Below are positions 8,417-53,245 of a stretch of 64,000 bases of DNA, piece after piece; position 1 is the stretch's first letter, and each line of letters opens with the position of its first letter. A model generated the notes under the pieces. It was not told where the DNA came from, made no database searches, and was given only the letters and a program-made list of their open reading frames with translations. The stretch covers positions 3,038,001 through 3,102,000 of the forward strand of contig NC_003552.1 of assembly GCF_000007345.1 (NCBI RefSeq), in the 5' to 3' direction. Both the position numbers and the translations under genes were made by a program. The DNA comes from Methanosarcina acetivorans C2A. Lineage in GTDB: Archaea > Halobacteriota > Methanosarcinia > Methanosarcinales > Methanosarcinaceae.

Positions 8417-9556
8417 ATGGCTTTTACTATGGAAGTGCCCGATGAAGCGGCGATCAAGAGTGAAGTAGATGAGCAAGTTAAACCGGTATCGGAGGAAATA
8501 GCCCAGCTTCAGGCTGTGGCAGAGAGAAATGTTGCGGAAATTCTGACCCTGGATATCGATGAATTTGCCAAAAAGAAGGATATACTCCAGTCGATCGAGT
8601 CTTTTGGGGCTGCCTCGATGAAAAGCTCGGCAGCTAAAAATTCTTTGCTGCAGGTGACAGTCGGGAACCTGTCCAGAGACGGCGACGAAGGCGGTGTTGT
8701 GGCAAAAGGCTTAATGAATTTGAACCGAGAACTAAAAGACCTGGACCCCAGCCTGGTTGATTTCACCAGGACCAAGATCTTAGGCAAGCTGTTCGACCCG
8801 GTCAGGGACTATTTTGCCAGATACCAAAAAGCAGATTCGGCGATTGCGGATATCATTGTCTCTCTGGACAAAGGGAAAACAATTCTGAAAAACGATAATA
8901 CTACTCTGGAGCTCGAACAACAGGCATTGCGCAATTTGACTAAAAAGTTAATGAAAGAGGTCCAGCTCGGTACCCTGATGGACAAATCGATTGAAACGCA
9001 GATCGGAGCGGCTAAAGCCAGGAACGAAGACCCGGAAAACGTTAAATTTGTCACTGAAGAAGTCCTATTTCCCCTGCGGCAGCGGATTATGGATATGCAG
9101 CAGATGATTGTCGTCAATCAGCAGGGTGTTATGGCGACAGAGCTGGTGATACGAAATAATAAGGAACTGATGCGCGGGGTAGAAAGGGCCAAAAATGTGA
9201 CGATTACCGCCTTGCGGACCTCAGTGATGGTTGCCGGGGCCCTCTATAACCAGAAGATTGTCCTGAAGAAGATTCAAATGCTCAATGAGACCACGAATAT
9301 TATCATCAGCAGCACCTCCCAAATGCTGAAGGAAAATGGGGTGGAAATCCAGAAACAATCAATGGAAAGCAATATCTCTGTCGAGACGCTGAAGACTGCC
9401 TTTGCCGATGTCATGGAAGCGCTGGATTCCATCAGCACCTATAAGCAGGAAGCTCTGCCCAAAATGCGGGATACTATCAATCAGTTCAAGGAATTGGCCA
9501 CCAAAAGCGAAGAACAGATTCAGCAGCTGGAGAAGGGTCATAAACTGGAGTTATAG
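8417..9556 (+). CDS. telA: TelA-family toxic anion resistance protein
   Basis: A 379-residue, almost entirely helical protein of normal TelA/KlaA length. Family blocks include the N-terminal stretch ending near SIESFG, the central ARNEDPENVKFVTEEVLFPLRQRI and the later VIRNNKELMRGVERAKNVTITALRTSV segment. No signal peptide is present, so it is cytoplasmic or membrane-associated. The family is named after tellurite resistance, but a biochemical mechanism is not established. A strong AGGAGGGG precedes the ATG by six bases. It is the last gene of the XpaC-like / vWA / TelA operon. A role in envelope-stress or metal/anion response is an inference from family and context. Confidence 0.9.
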   Translation: MAFTMEVPDEAAIKSEVDEQVKPVSEEIAQLQAVAERNVAEILTLDIDEFAKKKDILQSIESFGAASMKSSAAKNSLLQVTVGNLSRDGDEGGVVAKGLMNLNRELKDLDPSLVDFTRTKILGKLFDPVRDYFARYQKADSAIADIIVSLDKGKTILKNDNTTLELEQQALRNLTKKLMKEVQLGTLMDKSIETQIGAAKARNEDPENVKFVTEEVLFPLRQRIMDMQQMIVVNQQGVMATELVIRNNKELMRGVERAKNVTITALRTSVMVAGALYNQKIVLKKIQMLNETTNIIISSTSQMLKENGVEIQKQSMESNISVETLKTAFADVMEALDSISTYKQEALPKMRDTINQFKELATKSEEQIQQLEKGHKLEL

Positions 9557-10044: not shown

Positions 10045-10237
10045 ATAATTCATCCCTTCCTAATGCGACTTTTTGGAAAAAGGGGCTCAGGGCCTGGAAA
10101 TTCTTCCTCTTTTCTGTCACTGCTCCCAGGGGTCTCAAGCTCTTTCTACTTTCGCCTATATTTTTGCCATGTTATTTCTCCCATAGATAATAAATTATTC
10201 TAGGTATAAAATATATAATAGTTTCTGATACGAGTAA

Positions 10238-10369
10238 GAACCTATCCGAAAAGTGCTGCAGTTTGCTATAACTTTTACATTGGGCAATACGCAACCGGAA
10301 GGGAACCCGGATATTATAGCCTTCTCGTAATCTTTGCAACATGCCATTATCGACTTTTCGGATAGGCTC
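10238..10369 (+). mobile_element. 132-bp MITE, copy 1
   Basis: A non-coding 132-bp element with terminal inverted repeats GAACCTATCCGAAAAGT (left) and ACTTTTCGGATAGGCTC (right), which pair over 17 bp with one mismatch. It is flanked by a direct TAA on both sides (10235-10237 and 10370-10372), the likely target duplication. An identical copy lies inverted at 22816-22947. Short open frames across it are fortuitous. Terminal sequence and 3-bp duplication resemble IS5-group behaviour, so a related IS elsewhere in the genome probably mobilises it. Confidence 0.9.
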
Positions 10370-10400
10370 TAAATAGGGATCCTTGACCAACCTTTAGCCA

Positions 10401-10520
10401 GGAAAAAGAGTAAATAAAAAAGAGATAGAGTAAATAAAAAAGAGATAGAGTAAATAAAAAAGAGATAGAGTAAATAAAAAAGAGATAGAGTAAATAAAAA
10501 AGAGATAGAGTAAACAAAAA
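10401..10520. repeat. 20-bp minisatellite, about six copies
   Basis: The unit AGAGATAGAGTAAATAAAAA is repeated with a strict 20-bp period. The internal copies are identical; the first and last carry one or a few changes. It begins 31 bp after the MITE. No spacers are present, so it is not a CRISPR array. Copy number is likely variable between strains through slippage. Confidence 0.95.
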
Positions 10521-10934
10521 AAGGCATTGTGCCGATTTTTCTGTAAAACCACAAATCCCAAAAAATTGTTAGAAAGAAAATAACAACCTGAAAGAATCAA
10601 ATCACATACGGTACCCAAAATTTAACTTTGGATTTTGCGGTAAAATTACAACACTGCCTGTTATAACTACATTCAATTAACGATATTCAATTTCATAGGA
10701 TTTACGGAAATGAGCGTTGCCGTCATGATATCAGCCGCATAAATCCCGTATTAAATCAATTTTGTCGTTATACCACACCTTTCTCATGTTTTTTCTAAAT
10801 CCCGGACTTAACCAGGAGAACCCCGGAGAAAAAAACGGTCCCGGAATCATGAGAATCAGTTCTTCCTTTCTCACCTGCTGGACCACTCTTGGATTGTTCT
10901 CCGGCAAGACCGGAATTAAGCTCCCTAAGGCTCC
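10521..10934. other. Non-coding stretch, nothing recognised
   Basis: About 410 bp between the minisatellite and the 3' end of the beta-helix/thioredoxin gene. No family-like coding signal or RNA gene was seen. Confidence 0.4.
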
Positions 10935-22619: not shown

Positions 22620-23405
22620 GATTATGGATCTTTTTTGTGGGAATTCCCGACAGCTACAGCTAAAAGCGATTAAGTTTATGAACTAATTTTTCCCCCATTT
22701 TAGCCTTATCCATATTGGAATTTTGCTCTTATTAAAGGTGAGAAACCGTTACATATTCCAGTGCTGAAACACCGTTTGTTGAAAAAAGTAAATAGATTGT
22801 AACAAAAATTAGTTAGAGCCTATCCGAAAAGTCGATAATGGCATGTTGCAAAGATTACGAGAAGGCTATAATATCCGGGTTCCCTTCCGGTTGCGTATTG
22901 CCCAATGTAAAAGTTATAGCAAACTGCAGCACTTTTCGGATAGGTTCTTAGTCCATTATCGGTTTTGAATGACCATGCTTTGTCTACTATATCACATATC
23001 AAAGAAAATATATGTTCCATTGTATTATCTGTCTCAGGCGTAAAACCTTTTTTCAAGAAGCTCACATTCTTCATGAAAATTTCTTCGGCATAAGAAATAG
23101 CTTTATGAGAAGCTTCAGACAGTTCAAAATCAGAGTTAAATTCTCGTATTTTTTTGAATATGCGCAACAGCACTGATAACCGTATCAGAAAGTATCAATT
23201 GAGATATCTCATTGTAGGTAATCTTATCATTATCTGGAATCTCTTCAATAGAACTGAATTCCTCATAATACCTCTTACTAACGTTTTTTAATTGATGAAA
23301 CACGCAAAAAGAATGAGCCACTTCAGGAAAGACCTTTTTTACGGCTCCAATAATCGCTTTATCCTCATCAGAAACAATTTTTTGATTTTACCTTCAGGAA
23401 ATCGG
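22620..23405 (-). pseudogene. Truncated MULE-type transposase, disrupted by MITE copy 2
   Basis: The minus-strand sequence is a close relative of the transposase at 51878-53068, covering its C-terminal half from GNRFPE/GKIKK to the end plus the IS right end. It is broken in three ways: the 5' half is gone at about 23405, a base change near 23165 shifts the frame after HIQK, and a 132-bp MITE splits the LTN/SFKT region. Unlike the 51.9-kb copy, it keeps TGT at the codon where that copy has TGA. It abuts an ISAzo13-type relic. Confidence 0.85.
22816..22947 (-). mobile_element. 132-bp MITE, copy 2
   Basis: Reverse complement of 10238-10369, matching base for base by eye over 132 bp. It is flanked by TTA on both sides (22813-22815 and 22948-22950), which is TAA in the element's own orientation. 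The related transposase copy near 53050-53070 shows the empty site (ACTAACTAATTTTTG), so this insertion and its 3-bp duplication can be read directly. Confidence 0.92.
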
Positions 23406-51809: not shown

Positions 51810-53245
51810 TTTTCGTTTTCCCTCTATATCGTGCAAAACAATAAAATTTTAATTATATTGATATATTTTTTCTATTTATGGGAAAAGGAAACATTGCAAT
51901 AGATAAATCAATGATAAAAACGATAGTTGACGGCAAAATAATAATTCCTTTGCCAAAAGTTTTGGTTGAAAATCGATACTATCCTATGTTCTCTATATTC
52001 TCCCCTACTCAGTGTGATAGTTGTGGAAGTAAATTACATGTTAACTCTCATCACACTCGTTTTATTATATCACGTTACGGCACTATATCTCTCAATGTTA
52101 CATACTGGCTTTGTCCCACTTGTAAGAAACATTATCATGATCGGGTTATTGGTGTTCAGGGTTCTGCAAATTACAGTTCTGAATATTATGATACACAAAT
52201 AAATGTCAGATACGATGGACGATGCAGTCTGCACAATTCTCGGCGAATTGGGGAAACATATACAGAAGGAGTAATAAATGTCTGTGGAAGAGCTCCTTGT
52301 CCCACTTCATTGTGGTTATATGAACAGAAACTAGCAAAACTTTCAAAGCAAGAACTTTTGAACCAAGGAGTTAGCTTTGAAGAAACATTGTATGTTGATG
52401 GGAATTGGATCAAGAATGGATGGAAAAAAAAGCTTGAAGAATTTATTGGAACGAAACTCACAAAGAAAGAATGGAAAAAAATGCGATATAAATCTGTTTA
52501 CGTTGTTGCTACCAAAGAGAAGGTCATTTTAGATTTTGAAGTAACTGAGAGGTTACCAACAATTGAGGCTCTGATGCCTCTTTTTATACGAATAAAGAAC
52601 CGATTTCCTGAAGATAAAATCAAAAAGATTGTTTCTGATGAGGATAAAGCGATCATTGGAGCCGTAAAAATGGTCTTTCCTGAAGTGACTCATTCTTTTT
52701 GTGTGTTTCATCAATTAAAAAACGTTAGTAAGAGGTATTATGAGGAATTCAGTTCTGTTGAAGAGATTCCAGATAACGATAAGATTACCTACAATGAGAT
52801 ATCTCAATTGATACTTTCTGATACGGTTATCAGTGCTGTTGCGCATATTCAGAAGATACGAGAATTTAACTCTGATCTTGAACTTTCTGAAGCGTCTCAT
52901 AAAGCGATTTCTTATGCCGAAGAGATTTTCAGCAAGAATGTGAGCTTCTTGAAAAAAGGTTTTACACCTGAGACAGATAATACAATGGAACAAATATTTT
53001 CTTTGATATGTGATATAGTAGACAAAGTAAGGTCATTCAAAACCGATAATGGACTAACTAATTTTTGATACAATCTATTTACTTTTTTCAACAAACGGTG
53101 TTTCAGCACTGGAAAATGGAAAGGTTTCTCACCTTTAATGAGAGCAAGATTCCAATATGGATAATGCTAGAATTGGAGAATAATTAGTTCTTAAACTTGA
53201 TGGCTTATAGCTGTAGCTGTCGGAAATTCCCACAAAAATAGTTCC
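51810..53245 (+). mobile_element. Insertion sequence with MULE-type transposase, right end near 53245
   Basis: Comparison with the truncated copy at 22620-23405 shows shared sequence to about 53235-53250 (CGGAAATTCCCACAAAAA), which sets the right end. The left end is placed between the surface-protein start and the transposase ATG by elimination only. No inverted repeat or target duplication was confirmed. Confidence 0.55.
51878..53068 (+). CDS. MULE-type DDE transposase, ending early at a TGA
   Basis: The 396-residue frame has a zinc-ribbon region (CDSCGSKLHVNSHH, CPTCKKHYHD) and a MULE/IS256-like catalytic domain: first Asp in TLYVDGNW, second Asp in IVSDEDKAI, with FCVFHQLKNVSKRYYEE following, and the Glu in TPETDNTMEQ. 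Translation stops at TGA after LTNF. In the related copy at 22.8 kb the same codon is TGT (Cys), and the frame beyond the TGA here stays open for about 37 codons (YNLFTFFNKRCFSTGKWKGF and more). The protein therefore lost its C-terminal tail by a nonsense mutation. The catalytic residues remain, so activity is uncertain. Confidence 0.8.
   Translation: MGKGNIAIDKSMIKTIVDGKIIIPLPKVLVENRYYPMFSIFSPTQCDSCGSKLHVNSHHTRFIISRYGTISLNVTYWLCPTCKKHYHDRVIGVQGSANYSSEYYDTQINVRYDGRCSLHNSRRIGETYTEGVINVCGRAPCPTSLWLYEQKLAKLSKQELLNQGVSFEETLYVDGNWIKNGWKKKLEEFIGTKLTKKEWKKMRYKSVYVVATKEKVILDFEVTERLPTIEALMPLFIRIKNRFPEDKIKKIVSDEDKAIIGAVKMVFPEVTHSFCVFHQLKNVSKRYYEEFSSVEEIPDNDKITYNEISQLILSDTVISAVAHIQKIREFNSDLELSEASHKAISYAEEIFSKNVSFLKKGFTPETDNTMEQIFSLICDIVDKVRSFKTDNGLTNF

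What the first reader, a model, noticed from the sequence alone, without database searches (positions are those of the whole stretch)
10238..10369. Two identical 132-bp MITEs in opposite orientation with readable TAA target duplications
10238-10369 and the reverse complement of 22816-22947 agree over the full 132 bp by eye. Ends are 17-bp inverted repeats with one mismatch, and TAA (or TTA in reverse) flanks both copies. Copy 2 lies in a transposase relic whose relative at 53.05 kb shows the empty site. Identity implies recent or ongoing movement.
Basis: seen in the sequence. Interest (0 to 1): 0.7.

Follow-up and report, generated by a model that had tools for sequence, protein, structure and literature searches.

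The report
Mobile MITE related to acetate-operon leader
The two identical 132-bp sequences are small non-coding transposons that jumped recently in a methanogenic archaeon, and an old immobile branch of the same family sits at the predicted start of the messenger RNA for a key acetate/CO-metabolism operon, where it may have become a control element.

Summary
Confirmed. The 132-bp copies at 10238-10369 (+) and 22816-22947 (-) are identical, with 17-bp terminal inverted repeats (one mismatch) and TAA/TTA target duplications. The genome (5,751,492 bp, the size I remember for Methanosarcina acetivorans C2A) has a third identical copy and about 47 family members. All three identical copies have base-precise empty sites: copy 2 at a paralogue in the window (53055-53057), copies 1 and 3 at orthologous sites in other Methanosarcina. 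The likely transposase source is an ~870-bp IS5-family element with the same 17-bp ends and TTA/TAA duplications; it shares nothing else with the MITE. Kamoun 2013 (PMC3852290) lists a similar M. acetivorans MITE (IS5, 140 bp, 24 copies, IR 16, DR 3), so the mobile element is probably catalogued.

New: the family includes a single immobile clade (99/100 support) fixed on the sense strand between a conserved TATA-like promoter and cdhA (CODH/ACS operon) in 17 genomes of three genera, in 2-4 tandem modules. Its constraint has moved from the ends to the centre, which carries an 18-bp motif found only three times in the genome, all in cdh leaders. That 5' leader is reported to regulate CODH/ACS by an uncharacterised mechanism. 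Regulatory function is inferred.

The parts
10238..10369 (+). MITE copy 1 (132 bp)
   Evidence: identical to copy 2 and to G000:2981539-2981670; orthologous empty sites in six congeners
10238..10254 (+). left 17-bp terminal inverted repeat of copy 1
10353..10369 (-). right 17-bp terminal inverted repeat of copy 1
10235..10237 (.). target duplication TAA, left of copy 1
10370..10372 (.). target duplication TAA, right of copy 1
22816..22947 (-). MITE copy 2 (132 bp, inverted)
   Evidence: paralogous empty site in the window
22816..22832 (+). 17-bp terminal inverted repeat of copy 2 (GAGCC end)
22931..22947 (-). 17-bp terminal inverted repeat of copy 2 (GAACC end)
22813..22815 (.). target duplication TTA, left of copy 2
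22948..22950 (.). target duplication TTA, right of copy 2
53055..53057 (-). unoccupied TTA target in the intact paralogue of the copy-2 host gene
   Evidence: joined flanks align through it, 94% over 659 bases
51878..53068 (+). intact MULE-type transposase gene (396 aa), relative of the relic hit by copy 2
   Evidence: PF10551
9787..10053 (-). 89-aa ORF whose upstream region copy 1 entered
   Evidence: no Pfam match

Best explanation
The two window copies are non-autonomous transposons (MITEs) that an IS5-family transposase moves in trans. Inferred steps: the transposase of the resident ~870-bp element binds the shared 17-bp ends, mobilises the MITE and joins it to a TNA target (preferably YTWAR), leaving a 3-bp duplication. 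Shown steps: identical copies, matching ends and target duplications in MITE and IS, and empty sites for all three identical copies. The MITE interior is not an internal deletion of this IS; it is an independent sequence that has been kept and re-amplified across the genus. One branch of the family stopped moving long ago: it lies between promoter and gene at a cdh (CODH/ACS) operon in three genera, and its centre carries a cdh-specific 18-bp motif, so it was probably domesticated as a regulatory leader (arrangement shown, function inferred).
For: Three copies 100% identical over 132 bp, two at 96%, one at 88%. Empty sites: copy 2, copies 1 and 3 in congeners. 110/148 copies with a perfect 3-bp duplication, 109 TTA/TAA; C/T before and G/A after. 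The IS: 869-872 bp, ends GAGYCTATCCGAAAAGT, TTA/TAA duplications in this genome and congeners, ~274-codon frame matching NF033580 transpos_IS5_3 at 5e-79 with DUF4096 and DDE_Tnp_1, matches in 27 of 31 Methanosarcina genomes. MITE-IS similarity is confined to the 17-18 bp ends. MITE profile hits all 31 Methanosarcina, 5 genomes of two sister genera and 7 of another family. cdh branch: 42 modules in 17 genomes, one clade 99/100, interior 84% identical to the mobile consensus, z 8.9, motif: 3 of 3 genome hits in cdh leaders.
Against: No transposition has been observed. Thirty-eight of 148 copies lack a perfect duplication; 12 of these are TAA/TTA pairs, more than random single-base decay should give, so some copies may have recombined. 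For the cdh branch no transcription start was mapped here, RNA covariation is weak, and the motif differs by 4-9 bases in the mobile copies.
Confidence: 0.92

Rival explanations
1. The sequence is a conserved RNA gene or fixed regulatory element rather than a transposon.
For: Holds for one branch: fixed place and strand before cdhA in three genera; strong predicted hairpin.
Against: The window copies and the third identical copy sit at sites that are empty in relatives, with target duplications; the window copies match no Rfam family.
Confidence: 0.03
2. The family began as the cdh leader and became mobile when its inverted-repeat ends came to be recognised by the IS5 transposase, so the cdh copy is the ancestor and not a domesticated insertion.
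For: The tree is unrooted and the leader branch is long (0.19); the cdh branch carries the cdh motif that mobile copies lack.
Against: Leader modules show TAA/TAA duplication traces in several genomes (G036, G022, G006); the other cdh leaders have the motif but no such element; mobile copies also occur in genomes of another family.
Confidence: 0.15
3. The window copies were spread by segmental duplication or gene conversion, not transposition.
For: None found beyond their identity.
Against: Identity ends exactly at the duplicated TAA on both sides and the flanks are unrelated; empty sites exist.
Confidence: 0.01
4. A transposase other than the ~870-bp IS5-family element mobilises the MITE.
For: The GAACCT end of the window copies is not letter-identical to the IS ends (GAGTCT/GAGCCT); Kamoun 2013 names ISMma12 as partner of a similar MITE, and I could not compare sequences.
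Against: 16-17 of 17 bp and the duplication match; four full-length IS copies with an open frame are resident. ISMma12 may be the same IS lineage.
Confidence: 0.1

Closest known systems
M. acetivorans MITE listed in Kamoun et al. 2013 (PMC3852290, Table 4; partner ISMma12, IS5)
   Different: No sequence is given in the text held, so identity is inferred; no genus-wide spread, empty sites or link to cdh is reported in the section read
IS5-family insertion sequences (NCBIfam NF033580 transpos_IS5_3)
   Same: Ends, 3-bp TNA duplication, transposase family of the resident partner
   Different: The MITE has no gene and no internal similarity to the IS
cdh (CODH/ACS) 5' leader of Methanosarcina (Anderson et al. 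2009, cited in PMC3600222 and PMC5112694)
   Same: Upstream leader of the same operon type, with substrate-dependent regulation of unknown mechanism
   Different: A link between a MITE family and a cdh leader is not mentioned in the papers I could read; the 2009 paper itself was not available, and the other cdh leaders (cdh2 type) lack the element

Membership tests
MITE | Short, non-coding, terminal inverted repeats | tested here: met
   132 bp, 17-bp TIR with one mismatch; no gene of its own
MITE | Target-site duplication | tested here: met
   TAA/TTA at both window copies; 110/148 copies
MITE | Multicopy and inserted (empty sites) | tested here: met
   about 47 copies besides the two cdh modules; empty sites
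MITE | Ends shared with an autonomous element | tested here: met
   869-872 bp IS5-family elements
MITE | Mobilised in trans by that transposase | not testable with these tools
   needs an experiment
Internal-deletion derivative of the IS | Subterminal or internal similarity to the IS | tested here: not met
   interior scores within shuffles
Kamoun 2013 ISMma12-associated MITE | Same sequence | not testable with these tools
   table only; size, IR, DR, family and copy number agree
Domesticated cdh leader element (family branch, outside the window) | Fixed position and strand in orthologous loci | tested here: met
   17 genomes, three genera
Domesticated cdh leader element (family branch, outside the window) | Single origin | tested here: met
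   one clade, 99/100; few columns, root unknown
Domesticated cdh leader element (family branch, outside the window) | RNA structure kept by compensatory change | tested here: inconclusive
   94% of cells paired, covariation score reached by 15/500 shuffles, six pairs with double changes
Domesticated cdh leader element (family branch, outside the window) | Part of the transcript and regulating it | not testable with these tools
   TATA-like box about 25 nt upstream of the element end is only a prediction

The most novel reading that the evidence does not exclude
An ancient insertion of this IS5-type MITE at the transcription start of a CODH/ACS (cdh) operon was domesticated in the ancestor of Methanosarcina and two sister genera. 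It became the first ~135 nt of the leader, gained or kept a cdh-specific 18-bp regulatory motif (GGATAATAAACACTAATT, also near the predicted start of the other cdh operon on the opposite strand), and was multiplied with its promoter into 2-4 tandem modules, while sister copies such as those in the window still jump.
Probability: 0.6. Interest if true: 0.8.

Novelty: new variant of a known kind. Interest (0 to 1): 0.58.

Why it matters
As mobile elements the window copies are ordinary for Methanosarcina. The family matters because it links a recently active small transposon with a fixed, promoter-proximal element of the operon that handles acetate and CO in the main acetate-using methanogens. 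That operon's 5' leader is reported to regulate expression by an uncharacterised mechanism (PMC3600222), and this gives a defined segment and an 18-bp motif to delete or mutate. It would also be an unusual archaeal case of a MITE turned into a control element, with mobile relatives in the same genome for comparison.

Tried and rejected
MITE as internal deletion of the IS: rejected, only the ends match. RNA covariation in the mobile copies: none, only the ends pair. RNA covariation in the cdh copies: suggestive at best; the lower folding energy of their interiors (Mann-Whitney p 7e-9) uses related sequences and is not a clean p-value. A joined-flank query for twelve copies was not searched because most of those flanks are intergenic. 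A decayed MITE in cdh2-type leaders: not found in the cdhA loci examined. The key papers on the cdh leader (PMC2772459, PMC3457241) are not held.

Full report
OBSERVATION. The two 132-bp sequences at 10238-10369 (+) and 22816-22947 (-) are identical, base for base, and so is the TAA on either side; beyond that the flanks are unrelated. The ends form a 17-bp inverted repeat with one mismatch. Within the window this end sequence is far above chance (5 matches against 0.26 expected).

MOBILE ELEMENT. In the whole genome the 132-bp query finds three identical copies (the third at 2981539-2981670), two at 96%, one at 88% and some 35 more, mostly at 71-78%. A profile of the family finds 49 distinct places, two of them the cdh modules described below. 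Among 148 copies extracted from this genome and congeners, 110 have a perfect 3-bp duplication (60 TTA, 49 TAA, one TAG), and the base outside is mostly C or T on the left and G or A on the right, so the target is close to YTWAR. Of the 38 others, 12 read TAA on one side and TTA on the other, which may reflect recombination between copies.

EMPTY SITES. Copy 2: the joined flanks align without a break to 53250-52593 at 94%, with one TTA at 53055-53057; the host is the end of a MULE-type transposase relic whose intact relative is at 51878-53068. Copy 1: in G011, G001, G028, G026, G014 and G003 the sequence upstream of the relatives of the 89-aa ORF runs on through the site without the element. 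Copy 3: in G010, G007, G020, G023 and G009 the orthologous intergenic sequence runs on without it, for example TTAGTTACTGAGGTCTTAATTCAAACC against TTAGTTACTAA[MITE]TAAGGTCTTAATTCAAACC. So all three identical copies are insertions. This excludes segmental duplication and, for these copies, a fixed RNA gene. Identity of three copies at unrelated sites argues for recent movement; ongoing movement is not shown.

PARTNER. Searching the genome for the end sequence gave pairs about 870 bp apart. These are IS5-family elements: ends GAGYCTATCCGAAAAGT, TTA/TAA duplications here and in congeners, a frame of about 274 codons without stops in four copies, matching NF033580 transpos_IS5_3 (5e-79), DUF4096 and DDE_Tnp_1. 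Related sequences occur in 27 of 31 Methanosarcina genomes. MITE and IS share the 17-18 terminal bases and nothing else above shuffled sequence. The mechanism of choice is therefore mobilisation in trans by this transposase; this step is inferred.

WHAT IS KNOWN. Kamoun et al. 2013 (PMC3852290) list for M. acetivorans a MITE with partner ISMma12 (IS5), 140 bp, 24 copies, IR 16, DR 3, and remark that such MITEs resemble their IS only in the ends. Size, duplication, family and the 20-copy B subfamily found here fit well; the sequence could not be compared. I treat the mobile element as probably catalogued, with the 132-bp subfamily of the window as a small young branch.

SPREAD AND INTERIOR. The full-length profile, interior included, is found in all 31 Methanosarcina genomes, in five genomes of two sister genera and in seven genomes of another family of the order; one of the latter has TTA on both sides. 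In mobile copies the ends are the most conserved part (0.94-0.98) and the interior less so (about 0.81-0.93). No consensus RNA structure beyond the ends is seen in them.

THE CDH BRANCH. Some profile hits came in same-strand pairs 1.2-1.4 kb apart. Reading them showed that they lie upstream of, and on the same strand as, cdhA, the alpha subunit gene of CODH/ACS (Prismane/CO dehydrogenase family PF03063; the gene name is from my own knowledge of the sequence), in this genome (about 1214518-1214653 and 1215722-1215855) and in genomes of the two sister genera. A search with the leader found the arrangement contiguous with cdhA in twelve further Methanosarcina. In all, 42 modules were read in 17 genomes; the proximal ones mostly end 262-455 nt before the cdhA ATG (933 nt in one), and one to three further modules stand upstream, some with a truncated cdhA start between them, so the unit promoter-element-leader has been tandemly duplicated. 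The modules are preceded by a conserved GAACAAAAATG-AAA-TATTTATAA-ACGTCGCTTATGTGTAATTTAA, a BRE/TATA-like promoter about 25 nt before the element, so the transcript is predicted to start near the element's left end (spacing rule from PMC11409679). This is a prediction; no start site was mapped here. TAA/TAA duplications survive in several modules.

WHY IT IS THE SAME FAMILY BUT IMMOBILE. Leader and mobile consensus agree at 79% over 124 columns; with the 17-bp ends removed, 74 of 88 aligned interior bases agree and the score is 8.9 s.d. above shuffles. The 35 leader copies form one clade (99/100), so a single origin fits and repeated insertion does not; the root is unknown. Constraint is reversed: in leader copies the outer ten bases drop to 0.78 while the centre (GGATTCCGGATAATAAACACTAATTGT) reaches 0.93-0.98. 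Leader copies fold as RNA into one long hairpin (z -4.3 to -5.3 in four examples); 39 pairs are shared, 94% of cells are paired, six pairs show double changes, and the covariation score is reached by 15 of 500 shuffles. Interiors of leader copies fold better than shuffled ones, those of mobile copies do not. I call the RNA evidence suggestive only.

THE 18-BP MOTIF. GGATAATAAACACTAATT, in the centre of the leader element, occurs three times in the genome with up to two mismatches (reversed control: none): in both modules of this cdh operon and in the leader of the second cdh operon at 4741962-4741979. In the second operon, and in its relatives in congeners, there is no MITE and the motif lies on the opposite strand close to the predicted start. 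Mobile copies differ from it by 4-9 bases, leader copies by 0-4. Occurrence on both strands suggests a protein-binding DNA site more than an RNA signal. Published work holds that the cdh 5' UTR regulates CODH/ACS by substrate, by an uncharacterised mechanism, perhaps early termination or RNA cleavage (PMC3600222); the original papers were not available, and I do not know which of the leaders they used.

VERDICT. The window copies are ordinary, recently mobile IS5-type MITEs, probably of a catalogued family. The unexpected result is that this family has an old, immobile, position-fixed branch at a cdh operon. Domestication is my preferred reading; the reverse direction (MITE born from the leader) is not excluded.

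Noticed in passing
G000:C1:1214519-1214654 and 1215723-1215855 (L244); also L245-L248, L253-L264: MITE-family elements fixed between a TATA-like promoter and cdhA in 17 genomes of three genera, in tandem modules with truncated cdhA pieces.
   Followed up: yes
G000:C1:1214566-1214583, 1215769-1215786, 4741962-4741979: 18-bp motif GGATAATAAACACTAATT restricted to the cdh leaders, on opposite strands relative to transcription in the two operons.
   Followed up: partly
L244 1480-1518 and equivalents: Directly after most leader elements comes a conserved small inverted repeat GATCTC-(about 13 nt)-GAGATC.
   Followed up: no
L244, L245, L246, L248 beyond the distal module: A small regulator-like gene (KRRVSCFPKATYYKP..., DUF134-like from memory) accompanies the cdh locus in several genomes.
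   Followed up: no
G000:C1:4415418-4416422 (L060): An IS5-family copy and a MITE stand side by side, TAA-[IS]-TTA-[MITE]-TAA; the outer TAA pair could mean they moved as one unit.
   Followed up: no
G000:C1:2589252-2589514 (L076): Two B-subfamily MITEs in tandem sharing a single TAA/TTA between them.
   Followed up: no
window 10407-10521: Tandem array of a 20-bp unit (AGAGTAAATAAAAAAGAGAT, 5.8 copies) just right of MITE copy 1; a similar array was hit in G008.
   Followed up: no
12 of 148 copies: Excess of copies flanked by TAA on one side and TTA on the other, perhaps from recombination between copies.
   Followed up: no
window 8417-9556: TelA-family (toxic anion resistance) gene; its 92% identical relative in G011 has a different right-hand neighbourhood.
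   Followed up: no
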